A stretch of 64,000 nucleotides of DNA from contig CADCIX010000007.1 in assembly GCA_902801565.1 (NCBI GenBank), positions 62,001 through 126,000 on the forward strand. Reading direction: 5' to 3'. The position numbers were made by a program, and so were the translations under genes. The DNA is from an uncultured Veillonellaceae bacterium. Lineage in GTDB: Bacteria > Bacillota > Negativicutes > Selenomonadales > Selenomonadaceae. Positions within the stretch are counted from its first letter, which is position 1. Each line of letters begins with the position of its first letter. Below are positions 6,246-30,628 of this stretch, in pieces. The notes under the pieces are model-generated. The model was given only the letters and a program-made list of their open reading frames with translations. It made no database searches and had not been told where the DNA came from.

Positions 6246-6866
6246 ATGAAAAATCCCTTGCGCTATCAGATTTCCGAATATGACTGTGGCCCTACTTCGC
6301 TCTTGAACGCCTTGAGTTTTTTGTTCGAGCGCGAAGAAATCTCGCCGGAAATCATTCGCAACATCATGCTTTACTCTTTGGATTGCTATGAGAGGGGAGG
6401 AACCTTGGGGAAGAGGGGGACTTCCCGTATGGCCATGATGTTTCTCTCAAATTGGCTGGATGGTGTCGGGAGCATGGGCATCCTTCCCGTTGCAAGCCGT
6501 TACTTGTCCGGCGATGCCGTATACATGGGGAAGGGCAGCCCCGTGGTGGAGGCCCTGCATCGGAAGGGCGTTGCCGTGGTGCGGTTGAATTTCGATGGCG
6601 AGCACTATGTCCTGCTCACAGGAGAGCAGGATGGAAATATTTATTTGTTTGACCCTTACTGCCTGGAACATGGTCTGGAAGACAAGGCTATCAAGAGCGT
6701 GGGGGAACACCCCAAGGAATATAACCGCATCGTTCCCTTTGGATGCTTCAACCGCGAAACCGAGGAGCCTTACGCCCTGGGCAGTGTGGACAATCGGGAA
6801 GCCGTCCTTATTTTCAATCGCAGGACCATGCTCACGGCAGATAATACGATTGAGTATTTCATATAA
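6246..6866 (+). CDS. C39-like papain-fold protein, function unknown
   Basis: This 206-residue protein has the start of a C39-type papain fold, with the putative catalytic cysteine C14 in SEYDCGPTSLLNAL. H120 (DGEHYVLLTG) and D136 (YLFDPY) complete a plausible catalytic triad. There is no signal peptide, membrane segment or ABC domain, so it is not a bacteriocin exporter. It is probably a stand-alone cytoplasmic cysteine peptidase or peptidase-like protein. It sits at the end of the nifS unit and just before the encapsulin operon promoter. A role in sulfur metabolism is only suggested by neighbours. Confidence 0.65.
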   Translation: MKNPLRYQISEYDCGPTSLLNALSFLFEREEISPEIIRNIMLYSLDCYERGGTLGKRGTSRMAMMFLSNWLDGVGSMGILPVASRYLSGDAVYMGKGSPVVEALHRKGVAVVRLNFDGEHYVLLTGEQDGNIYLFDPYCLEHGLEDKAIKSVGEHPKEYNRIVPFGCFNRETEEPYALGSVDNREAVLIFNRRTMLTADNTIEYFI

Positions 6867-7127: not shown

Positions 7128-7142
7128 GAGAGGGGGGTGGAG

Positions 7143-8045
7143 ATGAACATTTTTGATGCAGTGGGAAATACACCTCTCTTCAAGCTCCAGCATGTCTACA
7201 GGCCGGAACGCGGCGTTTCTGTCTATGGCAAGGGTGAGTTCCTGAATCCCAGCGGGTCGGTGAAGGACCGGGCGGCCAAGGCGATGCTGCTGGACGGATG
7301 GAACAGCGGCAGGCTGAAGCCGGGCATGGAGATTCTGGATGCCACCAGCGGCAGCACGGGGATTGCCTACGCCATGATGGCGGCACAGCTTGGCTGTTCC
7401 GTGACGCTCTGTATGCCCGCCAATGTCAGCAGGGAGCGCAAACAGATTGTGCATGCCTATGGTGGCAGGATCATCGAGACCAGCCCTTTGGAAGGATCAG
7501 AAGGAGCATTGCAAATAGCAGCCCGGATGGCAGCCGAGGAACCGGGGCGGTATTTCTATCCGGATCAGTACAACAATGAGCAGAACTGGCGGGCGCACTA
7601 TGAAACCACCGCCGAGGAAATATGGGAGCAGGCGGGAGGAGCCGTCACCCATTTCGTCGCCGGGACGGGGACAGCGGGAACTTTTGTGGGAACGCTCCGT
7701 CGCCTGAAAGAGCTCAATCCCAACATCTGCGGCGTTCTCATGCAACCGGACTCGCCCTTTCACGGTTTGGAGGGACTAAGGCATATCGGCACGGCGCAAT
7801 ATACAGGATTTTTTGACGAATCCCTGGCCGATGAGGAACTTGCGGTGGACACGGAGGCAGCCTATGCCATGACCCGCCGCCTCGCCAGGGAGGAAGGCCT
7901 TTTGGTGGGCATCAGCGCAGCCGCCAATGTGCTGGCGACCATTGAGACGGCAAAAAACGCGCCGGATGGTTCCGTCATTGTAACCGTTCTCTGCGATAGC
8001 GGGATTCGCTATCTGGACGAGCCGGTATGGACTATGGAAGGATGA
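7143..8045 (+). CDS. Cysteine synthase (CysK/CysM family)
   Basis: This 300-residue fold-type II PLP enzyme makes cysteine from an activated serine and a sulfur donor. The PLP lysine is K41 in NPSGSVKDRAA, and the substrate/phosphate loop TSGSTG follows near residue 65. The length fits CysK/CysM. The next gene begins with a CysO-like sulfur-carrier domain, so the donor may be a protein thiocarboxylate as in mycobacterial CysM rather than free sulfide (inference). Serine acetyltransferase in the same operon argues that O-acetylserine is the acceptor. Start ATG 7143 follows a GGGGGG/TGGAG tract. Confidence 0.9.
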   Translation: MNIFDAVGNTPLFKLQHVYRPERGVSVYGKGEFLNPSGSVKDRAAKAMLLDGWNSGRLKPGMEILDATSGSTGIAYAMMAAQLGCSVTLCMPANVSRERKQIVHAYGGRIIETSPLEGSEGALQIAARMAAEEPGRYFYPDQYNNEQNWRAHYETTAEEIWEQAGGAVTHFVAGTGTAGTFVGTLRRLKELNPNICGVLMQPDSPFHGLEGLRHIGTAQYTGFFDESLADEELAVDTEAAYAMTRRLAREEGLLVGISAAANVLATIETAKNAPDGSVIVTVLCDSGIRYLDEPVWTMEG

Positions 8046-8052
8046 TTCAGAT

Positions 8053-9507
8053 ATGGCAGCAACGGTACTTATTCCCACAACTCTCCGCAGCTTCACGGGG
8101 AATCGCTCAGAGCTTTCGCTTGCCGGTTCCACGGTGGCACAGCTTCTGGATGCCCTGGTGGAGGAATGTCCGGATGCGAAAAAGGCACTTTTTGACGGGG
8201 AAGGAAAACTGCGTTCCTTTGTGAACGTGTTTGTGGACGGCAGGAATATCAAGGAACTGGCAGGCTTTGCCACAGAGGTGCCCGCAGGGGCAGAGGTCAT
8301 GCTGATTCCCGCCATTGCCGGAGGTTCCGGCAGGGAGAGCGTGATTGAGGAGCGGGATAGCGAAAAGCTGTCAAATGATGAGATTTCCCGCTATAGCAGG
8401 CATTTGCTCTTGAAAGAGGTTGGCCTCAAGGGGCAGCGACGGCTCAAATCGGCCAGGGTGCTGATTGTCGGACTGGGAGGCCTGGGAACCCCTTTGGCCC
8501 AATATCTGGCGGCGGCAGGGGTGGGAACCATCGGGCTCCTGGACTACGATGCTGTGGAAGCATCCAACCTGCAGCGGCAGGTCATCCATCGCACCCGTGA
8601 TGTAGGGCGCCCCAAGGTCGCTTCGGCAAAGGATGCCGTGAAGAACATCAATCCCCTGGTGAAGACTGAGGCATACAATATGCGCCTCACGGCTGAAAAC
8701 GCTTTGGATATCATTGGTGAGTACGACATCGTGGCCGATGCGACGGACAACTACAAGAGCCGCTACCTCATCAATGATGCCTGCGCGATTCTTGGAAAGC
8801 CGGATGTGTTTGGGGCCATGTACCAGTTCGAGGGCCAGGCCTCGGTCTTTTATGCCAGGGAGGGGCCTTGCTATCGCTGTGTCTATCCTTCTCCTCCGCC
8901 GCCCGGGCTTGTTCCATCCTGCGCCCAGGGCGGCGTGGTCGGGGTACTTCCCGGCATCATCGGCACCATCCAGGCCAATGAGGTCATCAAGCTCATTGTC
9001 GGCGGCGGCGAGCCTTTGATTGGGAGGCTGCTGGTATTTGACGCATGGAAGATGAAATTCCGGGAACTGAAAATCGCAAAGAATGAGGATTGCCCGCTTT
9101 GCGGAAAGCAGGCGAACATCACGGAACTGAAGGAATATGACTATGACGAGTTCTGCGGCCTGCGGCAGGAGGAAAAGGAAGAACCCATCGAGGGAATTGA
9201 AGCCAGGGAACTGAAACGGCGCATGGACGCGGGGGAGCCGCTGACCATCGTGGATATCCGCGAGCCCCATGAAAGGGCCATCGTCAAGTTCCCGAAGGCC
9301 GTGGTCATCCCCATCGGACAGCTGGCCCGTCGGCAGGATGAACTGAACCCCAAGGTGGATACGATATTCATCTGCAAGGAAGGAAAGCGGAGCATCCTCG
9401 CCATCCGTACCTTGCGGGAGGCGGGCTATAAAGGCCCCATGTACAACCTGAAAGATGGCATCAATACCTGGGCCAGAGATGTAGACAAGTCTCTTCCCCA
9501 GTATTGA
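8053..9507 (+). CDS. Fused CysO-like sulfur carrier, ThiF/MoeB E1 and rhodanese
   Basis: Three domains are joined in 484 residues. Residues 1-91 are a ubiquitin-like carrier that starts ATVLIPTTLRSFTG and ends IPAIAGG, closely like mycobacterial CysO. Residues 108-360 are an E1 adenylyltransferase with GLGGLGTP (140-147), the zinc cysteines C273/C276 and C347/C350, and TDN near 231. Residues 375-484 are a rhodanese with active C441 in FICKEGKRS. In CysO proteins the terminal Gly-Gly is adenylated and thiocarboxylated. Here G90-G91 is internal and runs straight into SGRES, so it would need cleavage to work. Domains two and three match MoeZ, the CysO activator. The gene lies 7 bases after the cysteine synthase gene. 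Confidence 0.9.
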   Translation: MAATVLIPTTLRSFTGNRSELSLAGSTVAQLLDALVEECPDAKKALFDGEGKLRSFVNVFVDGRNIKELAGFATEVPAGAEVMLIPAIAGGSGRESVIEERDSEKLSNDEISRYSRHLLLKEVGLKGQRRLKSARVLIVGLGGLGTPLAQYLAAAGVGTIGLLDYDAVEASNLQRQVIHRTRDVGRPKVASAKDAVKNINPLVKTEAYNMRLTAENALDIIGEYDIVADATDNYKSRYLINDACAILGKPDVFGAMYQFEGQASVFYAREGPCYRCVYPSPPPPGLVPSCAQGGVVGVLPGIIGTIQANEVIKLIVGGGEPLIGRLLVFDAWKMKFRELKIAKNEDCPLCGKQANITELKEYDYDEFCGLRQEEKEEPIEGIEARELKRRMDAGEPLTIVDIREPHERAIVKFPKAVVIPIGQLARRQDELNPKVDTIFICKEGKRSILAIRTLREAGYKGPMYNLKDGINTWARDVDKSLPQY

Positions 9508-9547
9508 CATATAAACAATCTGTGTAAACATTTTAGGAGGAGTCACA
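9504..9547 (+). promoter_or_regulatory. Possible weak internal promoter before the encapsulin gene
   Basis: TTGACA at 9504-9509 overlaps the stop codon of the fusion gene, but the hexamer 17 bp downstream (AACATT) is a poor -10. The gap then holds a strong ribosome binding site (AGGAGG) seven to eight bases before the encapsulin ATG. Extra transcription would help make the many shell subunits, but the evidence is thin. Confidence 0.25.
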
Positions 9548-10489
9548 ATGGCAGACGAGAAGAAGATCAACGCTTTGGGCAAGGAAGTTGCCTACAATCT
9601 TGCGGATATCACGAAGACGAGGCCGCAGTTCAGGTCCATCACGCCCCGCTGGCTTACGAAGCTCTTGGAGTTCAAGGGACTGGAGTCCGGCATTTACCGG
9701 GTGAACAAGGTAGTGGAGGGCGACACCCCGCTGGATGTTTTGTGCAGCTCGGAGAAGAAGTCGGACATCATTCCCCAGGGCTATGTAGAGTACGAACTCA
9801 AGCCGCGGGAGTACATTCTGAACTCCATTTCCACCATCATCAATGTCAACACGGCGGTGCAGGATGTGTACAGTTCTCCCTATGACCAGGCCAAGGAACA
9901 GCTTTCCCTTGCCATCGAGAGCCTTCGGGAGCGGCAGGAGAGCCAGATCATCAATAACGACGATTATGGTCTCCTCAAGAACGTGGCGGATTCCCAGCGC
10001 ATCCAAACGAGGAATGGCGCGCCCACGCCGGATGATCTCGACGAGCTCATCACGAAGGTGTGGAAGGAGCCTTCCTTCTTCCTGGCACATCCCCGTGCCA
10101 TTGCGGCTTTCGAGCGGGAATGCACGAAGCGCGGCGTACCTCCTGTCACCGTGAACCTTGCCGGGGGTACCTTCATCACCTGGCGGGGCATTCCCCTCAT
10201 TCCCACGAACAAGCTTTTGGTGGATGGCCTCAAGGAACCGAAAAGCCAGAGCGGGAAGACGAACATCCTGCTTCTGCGCACGGGCGAGGCAAAGCGTGGT
10301 GTCGTCGGCCTCTATCAGGCGGGCATGAAGGATGAGGCATCCCGCGGCCTGTCTGTGCGCTATCGCGGCATCGATGACAAGGGCGTCGCATCCTACCTCC
10401 TGTCCCTGTACTGCTCGGCCGCCATTCTGGCAGATGATGCTTTGGCCGTGCTGGAGGATGTGGAGGTAGGTGAGTACTATGATTACTAA
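9548..10489 (+). CDS. Encapsulin shell protein, Family 2A (SrpI-like)
   Basis: This 313-residue protein resembles Family 2A encapsulins, the HK97-fold shells typified by Synechococcus SrpI. The N-terminus (ALGKEVAYNLADITKTRPQF, then SITPRWLTKLLEFKG) and the later SFFLAHPRAIAAFERECTKRG and GIPLIPTNKLLVDG segments are typical of that group. There is no cyclic-nucleotide-binding domain, which separates it from Family 2B, and the length fits 2A. Family 2A shells package a cysteine desulfurase, and such a gene with a cargo-type N-terminus follows with an 11-base overlap. It should therefore form a hollow cytoplasmic particle that holds the desulfurase. The family call is by recognition, not by alignment. 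Confidence 0.88.
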   Translation: MADEKKINALGKEVAYNLADITKTRPQFRSITPRWLTKLLEFKGLESGIYRVNKVVEGDTPLDVLCSSEKKSDIIPQGYVEYELKPREYILNSISTIINVNTAVQDVYSSPYDQAKEQLSLAIESLRERQESQIINNDDYGLLKNVADSQRIQTRNGAPTPDDLDELITKVWKEPSFFLAHPRAIAAFERECTKRGVPPVTVNLAGGTFITWRGIPLIPTNKLLVDGLKEPKSQSGKTNILLLRTGEAKRGVVGLYQAGMKDEASRGLSVRYRGIDDKGVASYLLSLYCSAAILADDALAVLEDVEVGEYYDY

Positions 10490-12062
10490 TCCCGCCATCC
10501 CCGCAGGGCTTCCGACGGAGTCGGAGCTTCTGTCTCTGGCAGGCGAGTTTGAAGCAGAGACCTGCGCCAATGGCATCAACGCCCTTTTGACTGACGGCAA
10601 TCCTCAGGTCATAAGCCAGGCCATCGCGAAAGCGGAATCGGCAGCCGGGTATTATACTCTGGCTGATGCAGACTATGCCGGGCTGATTGACGAGGTGCTG
10701 ACAGCAGGAAATATCGTTGCCCCTGCGGCTGCCGCACTTGCTGAGGAGCCCCCTGCCGGCTACCAGCCTTCCGTCATTTCCGTCAGGGAAGCGGAAAAAG
10801 GCACACAGACAGTGGAAACAGCGCCTTCCGCCAAGTCTGGCAGCATTGTGATCGGCACCAAGTCTCTGGAGGATATCCGCCGTGACTTCCCGATTCTCTC
10901 GGAGAAGATCCATGGGCATGATCTCGTCTGGCTGGACAACGGTGCGACCACTCAGAGGCCCCGGGCGGTCATTGACCGTCTCGTGCATTACTACCTCCAC
11001 GAGAATTCCAATGTCCATCGCGGTGCCCATGAGCTGGCGTCCCGCTCCACGGATGCCTATGAGGGAGCGCGGCAGACCGTAGCGGATTTCATCGGGGCAC
11101 CCTCCAAGGACAATATCGTCTTTGTGCGTGGCACCACGGAGGGCATCAACCTCGTGGCGCAAAGCTATGTCAAGCAATATCTCCAGCCGGGGGATGAGAT
11201 CATCCTGACACTTCTGGAGCATCATGCCAACATTGTTCCCTGGCAGCTCGTTGCACAGGAGACGGGAGCGGTGCTGAAGGTCGCTCCCGTGGATGATCGC
11301 GGGCAGATCATCCTGCCGGAGTATGAAAGGCTCTTTACCCGCCGGACAAAATTTGTTTCGGCCACTCATGTGTCCAATGTTCTCGGCACAATCACCCCTG
11401 TCCATGAGCTGGTACAGATTGCCCATCGCCATGGCGCCCGAATCCTGATTGACGGTGCCCAGTCGGTGGCCCATCTCCCGGTGGACGTGTCTTCCATGGA
11501 TGCGGATTTCTTCGTATTTTCCGGCCACAAGATCTTTGCCCCCACGGGCATTGGCGCGGTCTATGGAAAGAAGGAGGTGCTGGAGGCTGCCAGACCTTAC
11601 CAGGGCGGCGGAAACATGATCAAGGACGTTACCTTTGAACGTACCATCTACAATCCCGCGCCCAACAAGTTCGAGGCAGGGACAGGGAGTATTGCCGATG
11701 CCGTGGGGCTCGGGGCGGCTCTTGAGTACCTGAATGGTATCGGGATGCCCGCCATCAGCCAGTATGAGCACGAGCTGACCGAGTACGCCATGGGGGAACT
11801 GGCGAGTATCCCCGGCCTTACTCTCATCGGCACAGTTCCGGACAAGGCAGGGGTTCTGTCCTTCGTTCTGGAGGGCCAGGACATCGTGAGCGTGGGCGAG
11901 CGCCTGAACCAGTACGGCATCGCCGTTCGCGCAGGACACCATTGCGCACAGCCCATCCTGCGCCATTACGGACTGGAAGGCACGGTGCGCCCCAGTCTGG
12001 CGTTCTACAACTCCCCGGAGGATATTGACGCGCTGGTACGCGCTCTTTATTCCATGGTTTGA
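10479..12062 (+). CDS. Cysteine desulfurase (SufS class) with encapsulin-targeting N-terminal extension
   Basis: This 527-residue protein carries a complete class II cysteine desulfurase from about residue 128, with PLP lysine K351 (FSGHKIFAPTG) and persulfide cysteine C489 (RAGHHCAQP). The preceding 127 residues are absent from ordinary SufS. They begin with a short helical segment (GLPTESELLSLAGEF, 10-24), continue with a small Ala-rich helical region to about 80, and end in a Pro/Ala/Ser/Thr-rich linker. In Family 2A systems such an N-terminus loads the enzyme into the shell. The start overlaps the encapsulin gene by 11 bases. ATG 10479 is preferred; an in-frame GTG lies 9 bases upstream. 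Confidence 0.92.
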   Translation: MITNPAIPAGLPTESELLSLAGEFEAETCANGINALLTDGNPQVISQAIAKAESAAGYYTLADADYAGLIDEVLTAGNIVAPAAAALAEEPPAGYQPSVISVREAEKGTQTVETAPSAKSGSIVIGTKSLEDIRRDFPILSEKIHGHDLVWLDNGATTQRPRAVIDRLVHYYLHENSNVHRGAHELASRSTDAYEGARQTVADFIGAPSKDNIVFVRGTTEGINLVAQSYVKQYLQPGDEIILTLLEHHANIVPWQLVAQETGAVLKVAPVDDRGQIILPEYERLFTRRTKFVSATHVSNVLGTITPVHELVQIAHRHGARILIDGAQSVAHLPVDVSSMDADFFVFSGHKIFAPTGIGAVYGKKEVLEAARPYQGGGNMIKDVTFERTIYNPAPNKFEAGTGSIADAVGLGAALEYLNGIGMPAISQYEHELTEYAMGELASIPGLTLIGTVPDKAGVLSFVLEGQDIVSVGERLNQYGIAVRAGHHCAQPILRHYGLEGTVRPSLAFYNSPEDIDALVRALYSMV

Positions 12063-12085
12063 CGGTTTCATGTACGGTCGGCGAG

Positions 12086-12103
12086 CAGCGGAAACATCCG
12101 CTG
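12086..12103 (+). other. Intercistronic hairpin before serine acetyltransferase
   Basis: A perfect 7-bp stem (CAGCGGA / TCCGCTG) with a 4-base loop lies in the 81-base gap. Outer bases can extend it imperfectly towards GGTCGGC/GCTGGCC, and TTTT follows at 12117. It could lower expression of the last gene by partial termination, or mark an RNA-processing point. No promoter is visible in the gap. Confidence 0.4.
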
Positions 12104-12143
12104 TCTTTGCTGGCCGTTTTGGGATAAGCGAGGAGGTTTTTTT

Positions 12144-13097
12144 GTGTCGGATATGATTTCCAACGGCATCCAGGGGGCTATTCACGGCATCCTGTCGGAT
12201 TATGAGAAAGGGCGCAGCATCGACAAGCTGGATGTGTTCCGTCAGCCGGACCGCCGCATGATCACGGAACTGACGGAGAAGCTGTTCCGCGTGGTGTATC
12301 CCGGTTTCTTCAAGGACAGGTCCTATCGGGTTTACAACGTGAAAAACAACCTTTCCCTGGTCATAGAGGATATTGCGTATCTTCTCAACAAGCAGATTGC
12401 CATTGCCTTGGAATACAACCTGCATTCCGGGGGGGAGAGCGAGGACATCGAGGGGCGTTCCCAGCTCATCACATTGGAATTCTTGAAAAAGATTCCTGCG
12501 ATACGGGAATTCATCGAGACGGATGTCCAGGCGACCATGGACGGCGATCCTGCAGCCTACAGCGAAGATGAGATCATTTTCTCCTATCCCGGCATCCATG
12601 CCATTACGGTGCACCGGCTGGCCCATGCCCTCCATGGCCTCGGGGTGCCGGTGCTTCCCCGCATCATGAGTGAGTATGCCCATAGCCGCACGGGCATTGA
12701 CATCCATCCGGGTGCGAAGATCGGCAAGTTCTTCTTCATTGACCATGGCACGGGTATTGTCATCGGCGAGACCACGACCATCGGGCACCATGTGAAAATC
12801 TATCAGGGGGTCACACTGGGGGCGCTTTCCACAAAGGGCGGACGCCACCTGCGAAGCCTCAAGCGGCATCCCACGATTGAGGACTATGTGACCATCTATT
12901 CCGGCGCCTCCATCCTTGGAGGGAATACTGTCATTGGGGAGGGCGCCATCATCGGCGGCAACGCATTTATCACGAAGTCCGTGGCTCCGGGGACACAGAT
13001 CAGTGTGAAGAACCAGGAGCTTCACTATGACAAGAAGAAGAACATCGTGAACAAAGCGGATTTTGAAGAAGATGAAGCCTGGTTCTATACGATTTGA
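12144..13097 (+). CDS. cysE: Serine O-acetyltransferase (EpsC-type)
   Basis: This 317-residue enzyme makes O-acetylserine, the carbon skeleton for cysteine. The C-terminal half is a left-handed beta-helix of hexapeptide repeats (IHPGAKIGKFFFIDHGTG, then VIGETTTIG and GVTLGALSTKGGRHL), with the active-site histidines in the DIHPGA and DHGTG segments. The long N-terminal helical region matches the EpsC branch rather than short CysE. GTG 12144 has GAGGAGG 7 bases upstream. It closes the encapsulin operon and supplies substrate for the cysteine synthase that opens it. Serine acetyltransferases occur beside Family 2A encapsulins elsewhere. Confidence 0.92.
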   Translation: MSDMISNGIQGAIHGILSDYEKGRSIDKLDVFRQPDRRMITELTEKLFRVVYPGFFKDRSYRVYNVKNNLSLVIEDIAYLLNKQIAIALEYNLHSGGESEDIEGRSQLITLEFLKKIPAIREFIETDVQATMDGDPAAYSEDEIIFSYPGIHAITVHRLAHALHGLGVPVLPRIMSEYAHSRTGIDIHPGAKIGKFFFIDHGTGIVIGETTTIGHHVKIYQGVTLGALSTKGGRHLRSLKRHPTIEDYVTIYSGASILGGNTVIGEGAIIGGNAFITKSVAPGTQISVKNQELHYDKKKNIVNKADFEEDEAWFYTI

Positions 13098-26468: not shown

Positions 26469-27865
26469 CGCAAAAGCAGGAGGAGATGAATATCGTGGTG
26501 GTAGGCCACGTGGACCATGGGAAATCCACGGTGCTGGGGCGGCTGCTCTACGACACTCACTCGCTTCCCTTGGGAGCAGTGGAAAAGGTGAAGAAAATCG
26601 CCCACGATACGGGCAAGCCCTTTGAGTACGCGTATCTTCTGGATGCCTTTGAGGAGGAGCAGAAACAAGGCATTACCATCGATACGACACGGATCCAGTT
26701 TTTCACGAAAAAGCGGGAATACATCATCATTGATGCTCCCGGCCACAAGGAATTCCTGAAGAACATGATTTCCGGCGCGGCAAGCGCGGAGGCGGCGCTT
26801 CTGGTGGTGGATGCCCATGAGGGTGTGCAGGAACAGTCGAGGCGCCACGCCTATATGCTGAGTCTTTTGGGCATCCGGAAGGTCTATGTGCTGGTCAATA
26901 AAATGGACCTGGTGGACTATCGGGAGGAACCTTTTCAGGAGATTGTGGAAAAACTGGGGGCATTCCTGGAAGAGCTTGACGTGCATCCCCTTGACTATCT
27001 GCCTGTTTCGGGATTCCAGGGCGATAATATTGCGGAAAAATCAGGGAATATGCCATGGTACCAGGGCAAAAGCCTTCTGGAAGCATTGGATTTCATTGAA
27101 GGAGAGGAGGCGGCAGAAAATAAGTCCCTGCGTTTTCCCATTCAGGATGTCTACAAGTTCGATGACCGGCGCATCATCGCGGGGCGCATTGAGGCAGGCC
27201 ATTTGGCCCAGGGAGACGAAATTGCCATCTATCCCGGCGGGCGCAAGACGTCGATTACGGCCATCGCCTATTGGCAGGACAAGGACAAGCGGAGTGAGGC
27301 TCATACAGGGGAATCCACGGGCATTCAGGTGCGGGATGAATTTTTCAACCAGCGGGGCGAAATCGTAACCCGTGCAGGGGATACGCCGCCATTGACAGCA
27401 AGCAGGTTCCGGGCCTCCATCTTCTGGATGGGAAAGGAACCCTTGAGATTCCATAAGAAATACAAGCTGAAACTTGCCACACAGGAAGTGGAGGCAGAGC
27501 TTGCCGCCATCACGAAGATCATAGATGCAGCGGAGCTGACCAGCCGTGAGGAAGCAGAGGAAGTCCGTATCAATGATGTGGCCGAGGTCATCCTGCAGAC
27601 GAAGGATGAGATTGCCTTTGACCTCTTTCGCGACTGCCAGGCCACAGGGCGTTTCGTTATCGTGGACGGCTACGATGTGGCAGGAGGCGGCATCGTCATT
27701 TCGGCGGAAGAGGAAGAAGGTTTCAGCGAGAAAACCATGCGTTATATCATGGAACACTTGCCGTATAATGGCGAGCTCACTGTAGTGGTGAAGAACGGCA
27801 AAGTGGACCGGCTGGAACGGATTGAAAAGGAAATCTTTTTGGGAATTGACGGCGAAGGAATTTGA
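26465..27865 (+). CDS. cysN: Sulfate adenylyltransferase subunit 1, GTPase (CysN)
   Basis: This 466-residue elongation-factor-like GTPase couples GTP hydrolysis to APS formation by CysD. G1 is GHVDHGKST (about residues 14-22), G3 is DAPGHKEF, G4 is NKMD, and EF-Tu-type beta-barrel domains follow. There is no C-terminal APS kinase domain, so APS is not phosphorylated by a fused CysC, which agrees with direct APS reduction by AprAB. The start is GTG 26465, overlapping the cysD TGA; no better start lies inside. Confidence 0.95.
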   Translation: MTQKQEEMNIVVVGHVDHGKSTVLGRLLYDTHSLPLGAVEKVKKIAHDTGKPFEYAYLLDAFEEEQKQGITIDTTRIQFFTKKREYIIIDAPGHKEFLKNMISGAASAEAALLVVDAHEGVQEQSRRHAYMLSLLGIRKVYVLVNKMDLVDYREEPFQEIVEKLGAFLEELDVHPLDYLPVSGFQGDNIAEKSGNMPWYQGKSLLEALDFIEGEEAAENKSLRFPIQDVYKFDDRRIIAGRIEAGHLAQGDEIAIYPGGRKTSITAIAYWQDKDKRSEAHTGESTGIQVRDEFFNQRGEIVTRAGDTPPLTASRFRASIFWMGKEPLRFHKKYKLKLATQEVEAELAAITKIIDAAELTSREEAEEVRINDVAEVILQTKDEIAFDLFRDCQATGRFVIVDGYDVAGGGIVISAEEEEGFSEKTMRYIMEHLPYNGELTVVVKNGKVDRLERIEKEIFLGIDGEGI

Positions 27866-27867
27866 AC

Positions 27868-28743
27868 ATGGGGGAAAACACGATGGCGATAGATTACAAG
27901 GAACTGAAAAAAGGCGGCTTCATGCGGCAGAAGCAGAAGGACTGCTTTTCCATGCGCCTCAAGTCTGTGGGAGGGCACTTCACGGCGGCGCAGCTCGGCA
28001 CAGTGCAGAAGGTGGCAGAGGAGTTTGGCGAGGGCTACATCCATCTGACCTCGCGGCAGGGAATCGAGATTCCCTTTATCAAAGCAGAGGACATCGGCGC
28101 TGTGAAAAAAGTGCTTTCGGATGGCGGCGTTTCCGTTGGTGTCTGTGGGCCCCGTGTCCGTACCATTACCGCCTGCCAGGGAAATGCTGTCTGTCCGTCG
28201 GGGCTCATCGATACCGTGGAACTGGCGAAGGAATTCGACAAGCGCTACGGAGGGCGGGAACTGCCCCACAAGTTCAAGTTTGGCTTCACCGGCTGCCATA
28301 ACAACTGCCTGAAGGCCGAGGAAAATGACATGGGCATCAAGGGCGGGATGCTTCCTTCCTGGAACAAGGATGCCTGCATCTATTGCGGTGTGTGCGAGGC
28401 CGCCTGTCGCGATCATGCCATACAGGTGGACAAGGAAGCAAAGGCGGTGTTCCTCGACAAGGACAAATGCGTTTATTGCGGCCGTTGCGTGAAGAGCTGC
28501 CCTGTGGATGCATGGCAGGGCAAGTCAGGGTTTGTCATCTCCTTTGGGGGATTGTATGGCAATCGCATTGCGGTGGGGAAAACAATCCTTCCCATCGTGT
28601 TCGAGGAGAGCAAGCTTTACAAGATCGTGGAGGTGGCTTTGGATTTCTTCGAAAAGAATGCCAAACCCGGTGAACGGTTCCGGAGCATGCTGGATCGTAT
28701 AGGATGGGAGGGGTTCCGGAAAGAACTGGAAGCTGTATCATAA
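27868..28743 (+). CDS. Siroheme sulfite reductase with ferredoxin domain
   Basis: This 291-residue protein has the compact sulfite reductase layout. The siroheme/[4Fe-4S] motifs are TACQGNAVCPSG (C-x5-C) and FTGCHNNCLKA (C-x3-C). Between them and the C-terminus lie two ferredoxin clusters, CIYCGVCEAACRD and CVYCGRCVKSCPV. Small siroheme reductases of this kind (AsrC/Fsr-related) reduce sulfite to sulfide with ferredoxin-type electrons. It is the last gene of the sulfate operon and provides the sulfide for the carrier genes downstream. ATG 27868 was chosen over TTG 27862 because GAAGGA lies 8 bases before it; ATG 27883 is possible. Confidence 0.88.
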   Translation: MGENTMAIDYKELKKGGFMRQKQKDCFSMRLKSVGGHFTAAQLGTVQKVAEEFGEGYIHLTSRQGIEIPFIKAEDIGAVKKVLSDGGVSVGVCGPRVRTITACQGNAVCPSGLIDTVELAKEFDKRYGGRELPHKFKFGFTGCHNNCLKAEENDMGIKGGMLPSWNKDACIYCGVCEAACRDHAIQVDKEAKAVFLDKDKCVYCGRCVKSCPVDAWQGKSGFVISFGGLYGNRIAVGKTILPIVFEESKLYKIVEVALDFFEKNAKPGERFRSMLDRIGWEGFRKELEAVS

Positions 28744-28922: not shown

Positions 28923-29132
28923 GTGAAAGTGACGGTAAATGGAGAAGAGCTGGCCCTGGAAAAGCCGGTGAATATCAAGGAGCTTTTGGTGATTGCCAAG
29001 GCAGAGCAGCCGGACTATGTGACGGTACAGAAGAATGATGCGTTTGTCGATCATGCAGAATTTGAAGACACCTTCGTGGCAGATGGCGACGCCATCGAGT
29101 TCTTGTATTTCATGGGAGGCGGCAGCAGATGA
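28923..29132 (+). CDS. ThiS/HcyS-like ubiquitin-fold sulfur carrier protein
   Basis: This 69-residue beta-grasp protein (KVTVNGEELAL start, VADGDAIEFLYFMGG end) belongs to the ThiS/MoaD carriers, whose terminal Gly-Gly is adenylated and turned into a thiocarboxylate. The gene does not stop after Gly-Gly: the tail is GGGSR. Extra residues must be removed before activation, as HcyD does for HcyS-Ala in Wolinella, and a JAMM protease gene lies two genes downstream. GTG 28923 has GGAGG 7 bases upstream. The 3' end overlaps the E1 gene by four bases. The context favours homocysteine or cysteine synthesis over thiamin; no thiG or other thi gene is near. Confidence 0.85.
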   Translation: MKVTVNGEELALEKPVNIKELLVIAKAEQPDYVTVQKNDAFVDHAEFEDTFVADGDAIEFLYFMGGGSR

Positions 29133-29953
29133 GTTTGACGAATGAGCAATTGGAACGCTACTCCCGCCATATCATCCTGAAGCAGGTGGGAGGCAAGGGA
29201 CAGGAAAAGATTCTCTCCGGCAAGGTGCTGGTGATCGGCACCGGCGGACTGGGAGCACCGGCGGCCATGTATCTGGCAGCGGCAGGAGTCGGCACCATCG
29301 GCCTGGTGGACTTCGATGTGGTGGATCTCTCGAACCTCCAGCGGCAGATCATCCATCAGACACAGGATGTTGGCAAGGCGAAGGTCGATTCCGGCAGGGA
29401 GACCATTGCGGCAATGAACCCCGATGTGAAGGTGCATACCTACAACGAGCTGGTAACGGCGGCGAATATCAAAGACATCATCCGCGATCAGGACTATGAC
29501 TTCATACTGGACGGCACGGACAATTTCCCCGCCAAGTTCCTGATCAATGATGCCTGTGTCCTTTCTGAAAAGCCATTCTCCCATGCCGGGATCATCCGTT
29601 TTCAGGGGCAGACCATGACTTATGTGCCGGGAGAGGGACCATGCTATCGATGTGTGTTCAAGGAACCCCCGCCGAAGGATGCTGTTCCTACTTGCCGTCA
29701 GGCGGGAGTCCTGGGCGTCATGGGAGGGATTCTTGGCACGCTGCAGGCAACGGAAGCGCTCAAGTATCTCTTGGGCGTAGGGGAGCTTCTGACAGGACAT
29801 CTTCTGACCTATGATGCACTCTCTATGACCTTCCGCAAGGTCAGGCTGCCCCGAAACGAGAACTGCGCTGTATGTGGGAAGCATCCCTCCATAACGGAGC
29901 TTTTTGACTATGAGCAGCCGACCTGTGACTTGCGCAATACGGGAGCCAGGTGA
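29129..29953 (+). CDS. E1-like carrier-activating enzyme (ThiF/MoeB/HcyF family)
   Basis: This 274-residue protein adenylates the Gly-Gly end of the upstream carrier. It has the nucleotide loop GTGGLGAPAAMYL near residue 37, VDFDVVDLSNLQRQIIHQ, GTDN near residue 130, and zinc cysteines in GPCYRCVF and NCAVCGK. Unlike the E1 at 8053 it has no rhodanese and no fused carrier. It starts inside the carrier gene (ATGA overlap), which argues for a dedicated pair. Confidence 0.92.
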   Translation: MSLTNEQLERYSRHIILKQVGGKGQEKILSGKVLVIGTGGLGAPAAMYLAAAGVGTIGLVDFDVVDLSNLQRQIIHQTQDVGKAKVDSGRETIAAMNPDVKVHTYNELVTAANIKDIIRDQDYDFILDGTDNFPAKFLINDACVLSEKPFSHAGIIRFQGQTMTYVPGEGPCYRCVFKEPPPKDAVPTCRQAGVLGVMGGILGTLQATEALKYLLGVGELLTGHLLTYDALSMTFRKVRLPRNENCAVCGKHPSITELFDYEQPTCDLRNTGAR

Positions 29954-29957
29954 TAGT

Positions 29958-30371
29958 ATGATTATACTGACGAGAGAGCAGTATGATTCCATCGTGGAAC
30001 ATGCCAAAAAGCATGCGCCTTTGGAAGCCTGCGGTCTTATCGGCGGCAGGACAGAGGGCGAGACCAGGACGGTGGACAAGGTCTATTTTCTGACGAACAC
30101 GGATGCCAGTGCCGAGCATTTTTCCATGGATCCCAATGAACAGTTTGCGGCAGTCAAGGATATGCGGTCAAGAGGGATTGGGCTTCTGGGCAATTTCCAC
30201 AGCCATCCGGAGACTCCCTCCCGCCCATCGGAGGAGGACAAGAGGCTGGCCTACGATACCAAGGCAAGCTATCTCATCCTGTCCCTGGCGGGGGAAGAAC
30301 CTGTTTTGAACAGTTTCCGCATTGACGGAGAAAAGAATGTCACAAGGGAAGAATTGAAGATTATCGAATAA
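29958..30371 (+). CDS. JAMM/MPN+ metalloprotease (Mec/HcyD-like)
   Basis: This 137-residue protein is a minimal JAMM zinc peptidase. The metal motif H-x-H-x7-S-x2-D is complete (H81, H83, S91, D94 in NFHSHPETPSRPSEED), with the catalytic glutamate E23 in PLEACGLIGG. Mec frees cysteine from the CysO-cysteine adduct in mycobacteria. HcyD both trims the carrier tail and frees homocysteine in Wolinella. It could do the same here for the GGGSR carrier, and possibly also cut the internal GGS of the fusion at 8053. ATG 29958 was chosen since the frame upstream lies within the E1 gene. Confidence 0.9.
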   Translation: MIILTREQYDSIVEHAKKHAPLEACGLIGGRTEGETRTVDKVYFLTNTDASAEHFSMDPNEQFAAVKDMRSRGIGLLGNFHSHPETPSRPSEEDKRLAYDTKASYLILSLAGEEPVLNSFRIDGEKNVTREELKIIE

Positions 30372-30385
30372 AGGAGTCGATTTCT

Positions 30386-30628
30386 ATGAGCATCTCAGCT
30401 AATGAATTCATTGATATCACGGATGTGACCTGCCCCATCACCTTTGTCAAGACGAAGGTGGCCTTGGAGGACATGGAGGACGGGCAAATCCTGGAAGTCC
30501 ATCTGAACGATGGGGAGCCGGTGCAGAATGTGCCCCGCAGCCTCAAGGACGAGGGGCATAAGGTGCTGGACCTCATAAAGAAATCGGATGGCACGTATAC
30601 TCTTTTTGTAGAAAAGCATGATTCATAG
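30386..30628 (+). CDS. TusA/SirA-family sulfur transferase
   Basis: This 80-residue protein has the TusA fold signature DVTCPITFVKTKVALEDM, where C16 followed by proline carries a persulfide, and a second half typical of the family (GQILEVHLNDGEPVQNVPRSL). TusA proteins relay sulfur from desulfurases to acceptors. It follows the JAMM gene by 14 bases and has a clear AAAGGAG site, so it probably brings sulfur to the carrier/E1 pair. The specific partner is inferred. Confidence 0.88.
   Translation: MSISANEFIDITDVTCPITFVKTKVALEDMEDGQILEVHLNDGEPVQNVPRSLKDEGHKVLDLIKKSDGTYTLFVEKHDS

What the first reader, a model, noticed from the sequence alone, without database searches (positions are those of the whole stretch)
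8053..9507. CysO-like carrier fused upstream of its own E1, with an internal Gly-Gly
The carrier domain ends AIAGG at residue 91 and continues without a break into the E1. Carrier activation needs a free C-terminal Gly-Gly. Either a protease cuts after GG (GGS context), or the fusion is a dead or novel cis-acting form. The stand-alone carrier at 28923 also has GG followed by S, and a JAMM protease gene is present.
Basis: partly seen in the sequence, partly recalled or inferred. Interest (0 to 1): 0.78.

Follow-up and report, generated by a model that had tools for sequence, protein, structure and literature searches.

The report
Sulfur-carrier/E1 fusion with internal Gly-Gly
A rumen-type bacterium joins a small ubiquitin-like sulfur carrier head-to-tail to the enzyme that activates it, burying the carrier's working Gly-Gly end inside one chain; conserved sequence and gene neighbours suggest that a JAMM protease cuts the chain to switch the carrier on, though no cut has been shown yet.

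Summary
It lies between a CysM-like gene and a family 2A encapsulin operon. It is not a sequencing error: seven distinct genomes carry the same fusion, as one clade among unfused relatives. In the fused clade the operon's own JAMM is gone; the remaining JAMM belongs to a second carrier cluster that lies nearby wherever the context can be read. A second, separate group of carrier-E1 fusions in other Bacillota also keeps the internal GG, with JAMM in the same gene run. In 398 sampled genomes JAMM occurs in 70, but in 11 of 11 with a fusion. The GG is invariant in 16 of 16 fusions, the linker drifts, and the carrier is under purifying selection. Best reading: a pro-form cut after GG by a JAMM, like MoaX or MoaD-MoaE. 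Cleavage itself is inferred. A new variant of a known kind.

The parts
7137..8045 (+). CysM-like PLP cysteine synthase, first gene of the run; carrier-dependent cysteine synthase by inference
   Evidence: Pfam PALP 1.5e-64; NCBIfam cysM 321 bits, under the cut-off of 394; conserved neighbour in unfused relatives
8053..8325 (+). CysO/MoaD-type sulfur carrier domain, residues 1-91
   Evidence: ThiS 1.8e-10; Mtb CysO 3dwg 9e-11 and 4n6e 3.5e-11; dN/dS 0.08-0.15 in the three close pairs
8320..8325 (+). internal Gly90-Gly91, proposed cleavage site after Gly91
   Evidence: invariant in 16 of 16 carrier-E1 fusions; stretch 87-93 of the model has pLDDT below 50
8326..8361 (+). linker, residues 92-103; contains one possible internal GTG start (8341-8343)
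   Evidence: 0 of 12 positions invariant in the seven Selenomonad fusions; the start codon is not conserved
8392..9096 (+). MoeB/MoeZ-type E1 adenylyltransferase domain
   Evidence: ThiF 3.5e-84; E. coli MoeB 1jw9 5.9e-61 and Uba4 6yub 3.4e-62; R113, R116, D166, R175, K188, D232, C273 and C276 invariant
9202..9477 (+). rhodanese domain with C441 in CKEGKRS
   Evidence: Rhodanese 4.8e-12; C441, G444, R446, S447 nearly invariant
9548..10489 (+). family 2A encapsulin shell protein
   Evidence: NF041162 491.8 bits against cut-off 380; directly downstream of all seven Selenomonad fusions
10470..12062 (+). encapsulin cargo cysteine desulfurase with N-terminal extension
   Evidence: NF041166 778.7 bits, just under the cut-off of 800; SufS family over its cut-off
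12144..13097 (+). serine O-acetyltransferase (CysE-like)
   Evidence: cysE 165 bits, under cut-off 210; EpsC 150.7 against cut-off 150
28923..29132 (+). second, stand-alone carrier ending GGGSR (ATG 28893 possible)
   Evidence: ThiS TIGR01683 3.3e-15; capped GGG homologues
29129..29953 (+). E1 of the second cluster, no rhodanese domain
   Evidence: ThiF 4.8e-84; separate branch of the E1 tree
29958..30371 (+). JAMM metalloprotease of the second cluster; the only Prok-JAB over the cut-off in the genome; proposed to cut after Gly91
   Evidence: Prok-JAB 2.4e-26; one hit over the cut-off in the genome; E23, H81, H83, S91, D94 invariant
30386..30628 (+). TusA/SirA-like sulfurtransferase of the second cluster
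   Evidence: TusA 2.3e-20
27862..28743 (+). sulfite reductase-like protein upstream of the second cluster
   Evidence: NIR_SIR 1.5e-30 and 4Fe-4S domains

Best explanation
The gene encodes a pro-form in which a CysO-type sulfur carrier is made in one chain with its own E1 and rhodanese domain. The C-terminal Gly-Gly is masked by the peptide bond to residue 92. A JAMM metalloprotease cuts after Gly91 and frees the carrier; the E1 domain then adenylates Gly91, the rhodanese domain supplies sulfur to form the thiocarboxylate, and the adjacent CysM-like enzyme uses it to make cysteine. In this genome the only strong JAMM is the one at 29958-30371 in the second carrier cluster, so it would serve both carriers. 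The fusion arose when two overlapping genes merged; the carrier already had a cap after GG that had to be removed, so the E1 became the cap. Shown: architecture, conservation of GG, selection on the carrier, capped unfused relatives with an adjacent JAMM, absence of the operon's own JAMM, and co-occurrence with JAMM. Inferred: cleavage, the protease, the sulfur donor (perhaps the encapsulated desulfurase), and the product.
For: Unfused relatives have CysM-JAMM-CysO-E1/rhodanese-encapsulin-desulfurase order, with CysO caps such as GG|TSEAE, GG|SGPR, GG|AS and the E1 start overlapping or next to the carrier stop in another frame. The E1 tree puts the seven Selenomonad fusions in one clade (100/99) inside this group, and a second group of nine fusions elsewhere; the best tree needs four label changes and the starred branches force at least three. 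GG is invariant in 16 of 16 fusions; the residue after it is S, A or Q. Among the Selenomonad fusions the carrier shows dN/dS 0.08-0.15 in the close pairs while no linker position is invariant. JAMM is found in 70 of 398 Bacillota genomes but in 11 of 11 with a fusion (Fisher 2.5e-9; 6 of 6 families against 33 of about 140, p = 1.2e-4); it is in the same short gene run in the nine outside the family. In Selenomonads the JAMM lies about 3-20 kb away in five genomes and in the same gene run in a sixth, across a 141-nt contig overlap. E1 and JAMM catalytic residues are intact. The junction 87-93 is a low-confidence stretch of the model. Precedents: MoaX is cut between Gly82 and Ser83 and needs it for activity (PMC4326299); DRJAMM cuts a MoaD-MoaE fusion (PMC8832034); capped carriers need a protease such as QbsD (PMC6006322).
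Against: No cleavage data. The JAMM dedicated to this operon in relatives is missing from all fused loci whose context is readable, and the remaining JAMM is only 28-35% identical to those, so its acceptance of this site is assumed. No JAMM was found in G069, which has the fusion (incomplete, 85%). Capped or fused carriers also occur in genomes without a strong JAMM (G286, G322, G452, G571, and a MoaD-MoaE fusion in G395), so another protease may exist. Carrier constraint is weaker than that of the E1. Unfused operons of this type carry JAMM too, so co-occurrence shows retention, not a link peculiar to the fusion.
Confidence: 0.7

Rival explanations
1. The fused carrier domain is retired or structural: after the operon's JAMM was lost it could not be unmasked, and the E1/rhodanese now serves other carriers in trans, such as the one at 28923. 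The N-terminal domain remains as a docking or stability module.
For: The operon's own JAMM is absent from the Selenomonad fused loci; the genome has two other carriers; the carrier domain evolves faster than the E1.
Against: GG is invariant while the linker next to it drifts; carrier dN/dS is 0.08-0.15 in close pairs; the second group of fusions keeps JAMM in the same gene run; CysM is retained next to the fusion in several loci.
Confidence: 0.13
2. Cleavage happens after GG, but by a protease other than the cluster-2 JAMM.
For: The protease of MoaX was unidentified (PMC4326299); G069 has the fusion with no JAMM found; capped or fused carriers exist in genomes without a strong JAMM.
Against: JAMM in 11 of 11 fusion genomes of the sample and close to the fusion wherever context is readable.
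Confidence: 0.1
3. The fusion works uncut in cis by a new chemistry, or the GG of one chain is presented to the other chain of an E1 dimer without hydrolysis.
For: The linker is short, with only two residues before the E1 start in L094, so the carrier is held close to an E1.
Against: Known E1 chemistry adenylates a free C-terminal glycine carboxylate (established knowledge); MoaX uncut is inactive.
Confidence: 0.04
4. A second product, E1/rhodanese alone, is made by internal initiation at GTG 8341, so the fusion is partly bypassed.
For: A GTG with an AGGGA upstream lies in the linker of the window; L007 has GTG with AGGA.
Against: L009 has GTA at that codon; the other fusions lack a Shine-Dalgarno-like match there. 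It would not free the carrier.
Confidence: 0.03

Closest known systems
CysO-CysM-Mec cysteine pathway of Mycobacterium tuberculosis, with MoeZ as E1 (general knowledge; MoeZR in PMC3227635, only its listing seen)
   Same: CysO-type carrier, CysM-like enzyme, E1 with rhodanese domain, JAMM protease in relatives
   Different: carrier and E1 are one chain with an internal GG; operon's own JAMM missing; linked to an encapsulin
MoaX of M. tuberculosis and MoaD-MoaE of Deinococcus (PMC4326299, PMC8832034)
   Same: carrier fused to its partner through an internal GG (GG|S in MoaX); cleavage needed; JAMM cuts the Deinococcus form
   Different: the partner here is the activating E1, not MoaE; cleavage not shown here
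ThiS-ThiF and Ubl-E1-TBP fusions (Iyer 2006, PMC1779556; PMC2948915)
   Same: ubiquitin-like domain N-terminal to an E1
   Different: Iyer describes the domain in certain ThiF proteins as distinct from ThiS; the passages read do not discuss a junction GG; here GG is kept and a rhodanese follows
Capped sulfur carriers processed by QbsD-type JAMM (PMC6006322)
   Same: residues after GG that must be removed; JAMM gene clustered with the carrier
   Different: cap is a whole enzyme instead of one or two residues
Family 2A encapsulin / cysteine desulfurase operons (PMC8346489, PMC8049743)
   Same: shell, cysteine desulfurase cargo, serine acetyltransferase, rhodanese domain
   Different: the rhodanese is part of a carrier-E1 fusion, with CysM upstream; searches of both papers' main text for ThiF (and of PMC8346489 for MoaD, MoeZ, CysO) found nothing

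Membership tests
CysO-type sulfur carrier | ThiS/MoaD beta-grasp domain ending in Gly-Gly | tested here: met
CysO-type sulfur carrier | free C-terminal Gly-Gly in the encoded protein | tested here: not met
   GG at 90-91 of 484; a free end could only follow cleavage
CysO-type sulfur carrier | thiocarboxylate formation and use by CysM | not testable with these tools
   biochemical
MoeZ-type E1 with rhodanese | ThiF domain followed by rhodanese domain, catalytic residues present | tested here: met
   but NCBIfam MoeZ PRK07878 gives 440 bits, under its cut-off of 647, so MoeZ-like rather than MoeZ
JAMM-processed carrier fusion (MoaX/MoaD-MoaE kind) | internal GG conserved at the junction across homologues | tested here: met
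   16 of 16
JAMM-processed carrier fusion (MoaX/MoaD-MoaE kind) | JAMM with intact MPN+ residues in the genome | tested here: met
   not found in G069, incomplete
JAMM-processed carrier fusion (MoaX/MoaD-MoaE kind) | cleavage after GG | not testable with these tools
   needs mass spectrometry
Family 2A encapsulin operon | F2A shell protein | tested here: met
   NF041162 491.8 bits, cut-off 380
Family 2A encapsulin operon | F2A cargo cysteine desulfurase | tested here: inconclusive
   NF041166 778.7 bits, just under the cut-off of 800; position next to the shell fits

The most novel reading that the evidence does not exclude
A single-chain, cleavage-activated carrier/E1/sulfurtransferase that takes sulfur from an encapsulated cysteine desulfurase and hands it to CysM, with its activation gated by a JAMM borrowed from a second carrier pathway, so that one protease couples two sulfur branches.
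Probability: 0.2. Interest if true: 0.7.

Novelty: new variant of a known kind. Interest (0 to 1): 0.5.

Why it matters
It offers a natural, testable case of a ubiquitin-like carrier fused to its own E1 and unmasked by proteolysis, seen in two separate groups of an E1 tree. It also ties family 2A encapsulins, whose sulfur acceptor was left open in the paper read here (PMC8049743), to a carrier-E1-rhodanese-CysM gene set that could be that acceptor.

Tried and rejected
Sequencing frameshift: rejected, seven distinct genomes share the fusion. Internal start of the E1 as a conserved device: not supported. 'GG-S conserved': weakened, 12 of 16. Cap presence as a strict marker of JAMM: not upheld; one-residue caps occur in G286, G322, G452 and G571, whose only Prok-JAB matches are weak (E 6.5e-7 or worse; what they are was not resolved). 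The cap-versus-JAMM comparison used 30 loci returned by rank, so it is not a random sample. The order search returned the same 189 genomes as the family search and added nothing. The Wolinella HcyS/HcyD paper (PMC3089676) is not held. The structure model gives no domain arrangement (pTM 0.60) and was not searched against folds.

Full report
WHAT IS THERE. Window 8053-9507 is a single 484-aa ORF with a ThiS/MoaD-type carrier at 5-91, a ThiF-type E1 at 114-348 and a rhodanese domain at 384-475. The E1 matches E. coli MoeB and Uba4 structures and the carrier matches Mtb CysO. The glycines are residues 90-91, and the chain continues SGRESVIEERDSEKLSNDEISRYSRH. Upstream is a CysM-like gene; downstream are a family 2A encapsulin shell, its likely cysteine desulfurase cargo and a CysE-like gene. 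About 20 kb away is a second cluster: a carrier ending GGGSR, its E1, a JAMM and a TusA. The genome has three ThiS-family matches and one Prok-JAB match over the cut-off.

NOT AN ERROR. The same in-frame fusion is in seven distinct genomes: six of the 189 searched in the family, and L007, a contig labelled Thermoguttaceae that probably is misbinned. All 189 belong to one family; the order search returned the same set.

WHERE IT CAME FROM. Unfused relatives in Synergistaceae, Treponema, Peptococcaceae and Clostridiales Family XIII have the order CysM-JAMM-CysO-E1/rhodanese-encapsulin-desulfurase, six of ten followed by CysE; some contigs end earlier. In the ten such loci examined, CysO carries 2-16 residues after GG, and the E1 lies in another frame with its likely start overlapping or next to the carrier's stop. 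A small indel there would join the genes; that step is inference. In the E1 tree the seven Selenomonad fusions form one clade (100/99) within this group; nine further fusions from five other families sit elsewhere, with two unfused rows among them. The best tree needs four changes of the label and the well-supported branches force at least three, which may include losses. In the fused Selenomonad loci no JAMM lies between the carrier and the gene upstream of it where that is readable; the window's JAMM is 69-88% identical to three other cluster-2 JAMMs, 64% to the Selenomonas ones, and 28-35% to the operon JAMMs of the relatives.

THE JUNCTION. GG is invariant in all 16 fusions; the next residue is S in 12, A in 3, Q in 1. 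Across the seven Selenomonad fusions no position of the 12-residue linker is invariant. Pairwise dN/dS of the carrier is 0.08, 0.10 and 0.15 in the three closest informative pairs and 0.12-0.26 in more distant ones, many of which are saturated; the E1 gives 0.04-0.06 in the close pairs. These are simple NG86 estimates without a formal test. The AlphaFold2 model (mean pLDDT 84.3, pTM 0.60, 30 sequences) has pLDDT below 50 at 87-93, consistent with a flexible junction. A possible internal GTG start at 8341 is not conserved.

JAMM CO-OCCURRENCE. In an even draw of 398 genomes of the phylum, 11 have a carrier-E1 fusion at the threshold used and 70 have a Prok-JAB match at E 1e-10; all 11 are among the 70 (Fisher 2.5e-9). 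Related genomes are not independent; at family level 6 of 6 against 33 of about 140 gives 1.2e-4. Because unfused operons of this type also carry JAMM, this supports retention of JAMM, not a link peculiar to the fusion. In the nine outside the family, JAMM is in the same short gene run, with CysM beside it in five. Among Selenomonads the JAMM is about 2.8 kb (L007), 3.5 kb (L010, L011), 14.5 kb (G187) and 20 kb (window) from the fusion, and in G123 it is in the same run across two contigs that share exactly 141 nt; reading that overlap as adjacency is an inference from assembly practice. In G069 the contig ends and no JAMM was found; that genome is 85% complete.

EXCEPTIONS. One-residue caps occur in G286, G322, G452 and G571, and G395 has a MoaD-MoaE fusion with internal GG. 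At a looser threshold these genomes show only weak Prok-JAB matches, the best at 6.5e-7 and 4.8e-6. I did not establish what those proteins are. They may be distant JAMMs, or another protease may act.

LITERATURE. MoaX is cut between Gly82 and Ser83 by an unidentified protease and needs this for activity (PMC4326299). DRJAMM cuts a MoaD-MoaE fusion (PMC8832034). Carriers with residues after GG typically need a protease such as QbsD (PMC6006322). Iyer et al. 2006 listed the operon with carrier, E1-rhodanese, JAB and cysteine synthase, the sulfur-metabolism operon like cluster 2, and ThiS-ThiF fusions (PMC1779556); Ubl-E1-TBP is reported in Thaumarchaeota (PMC2948915). Family 2A encapsulin operons are reported enriched in rhodaneses and serine acetyltransferases (PMC8346489). 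Only passages found by term were read in these papers, so beyond the terms searched, absence of a topic there is not shown.

VERDICT. The gene most likely makes a pro-form whose carrier is released by a JAMM after Gly91 and then works in CysO-type cysteine synthesis. Cleavage, the identity of the protease and the sulfur source are inferences. It is a new variant of a known kind.

Noticed in passing
window 7137-13097: CysM / carrier-E1-rhodanese / family 2A encapsulin / desulfurase cargo / CysE run, with similar order in Synergistaceae, Treponema, Peptococcaceae and Clostridiales XIII, links the encapsulin to a carrier-based cysteine pathway.
   Followed up: partly
L007 1-16378: Contig labelled Thermoguttaceae (Planctomycetota) carries Selenomonad-like clusters, with 74-95% identity to the window in most of these genes; probably misbinned.
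   Followed up: no
L118, L126, L142, L116: Carriers with one residue after GG (L, R, R, C) in genomes without a strong JAMM match.
   Followed up: partly
L149: MoaD-MoaE fusion with internal PPVAGG|NGAHG in G395, a genome without a strong JAMM match.
   Followed up: partly
L094: Carrier-E1 fusion in which only two residues separate GG from the E1 start (GG-SN-LTPEQVERYSRH).
   Followed up: no
L010, L011: Two CysE-like genes flank the fusion-encapsulin-desulfurase block in Selenomonas; the CysM-like gene is not seen next to the fusion there.
   Followed up: no
window 6246-6866: Uncharacterised ORF between the cystathionine-synthase-like gene and CysM; not scanned.
   Followed up: no
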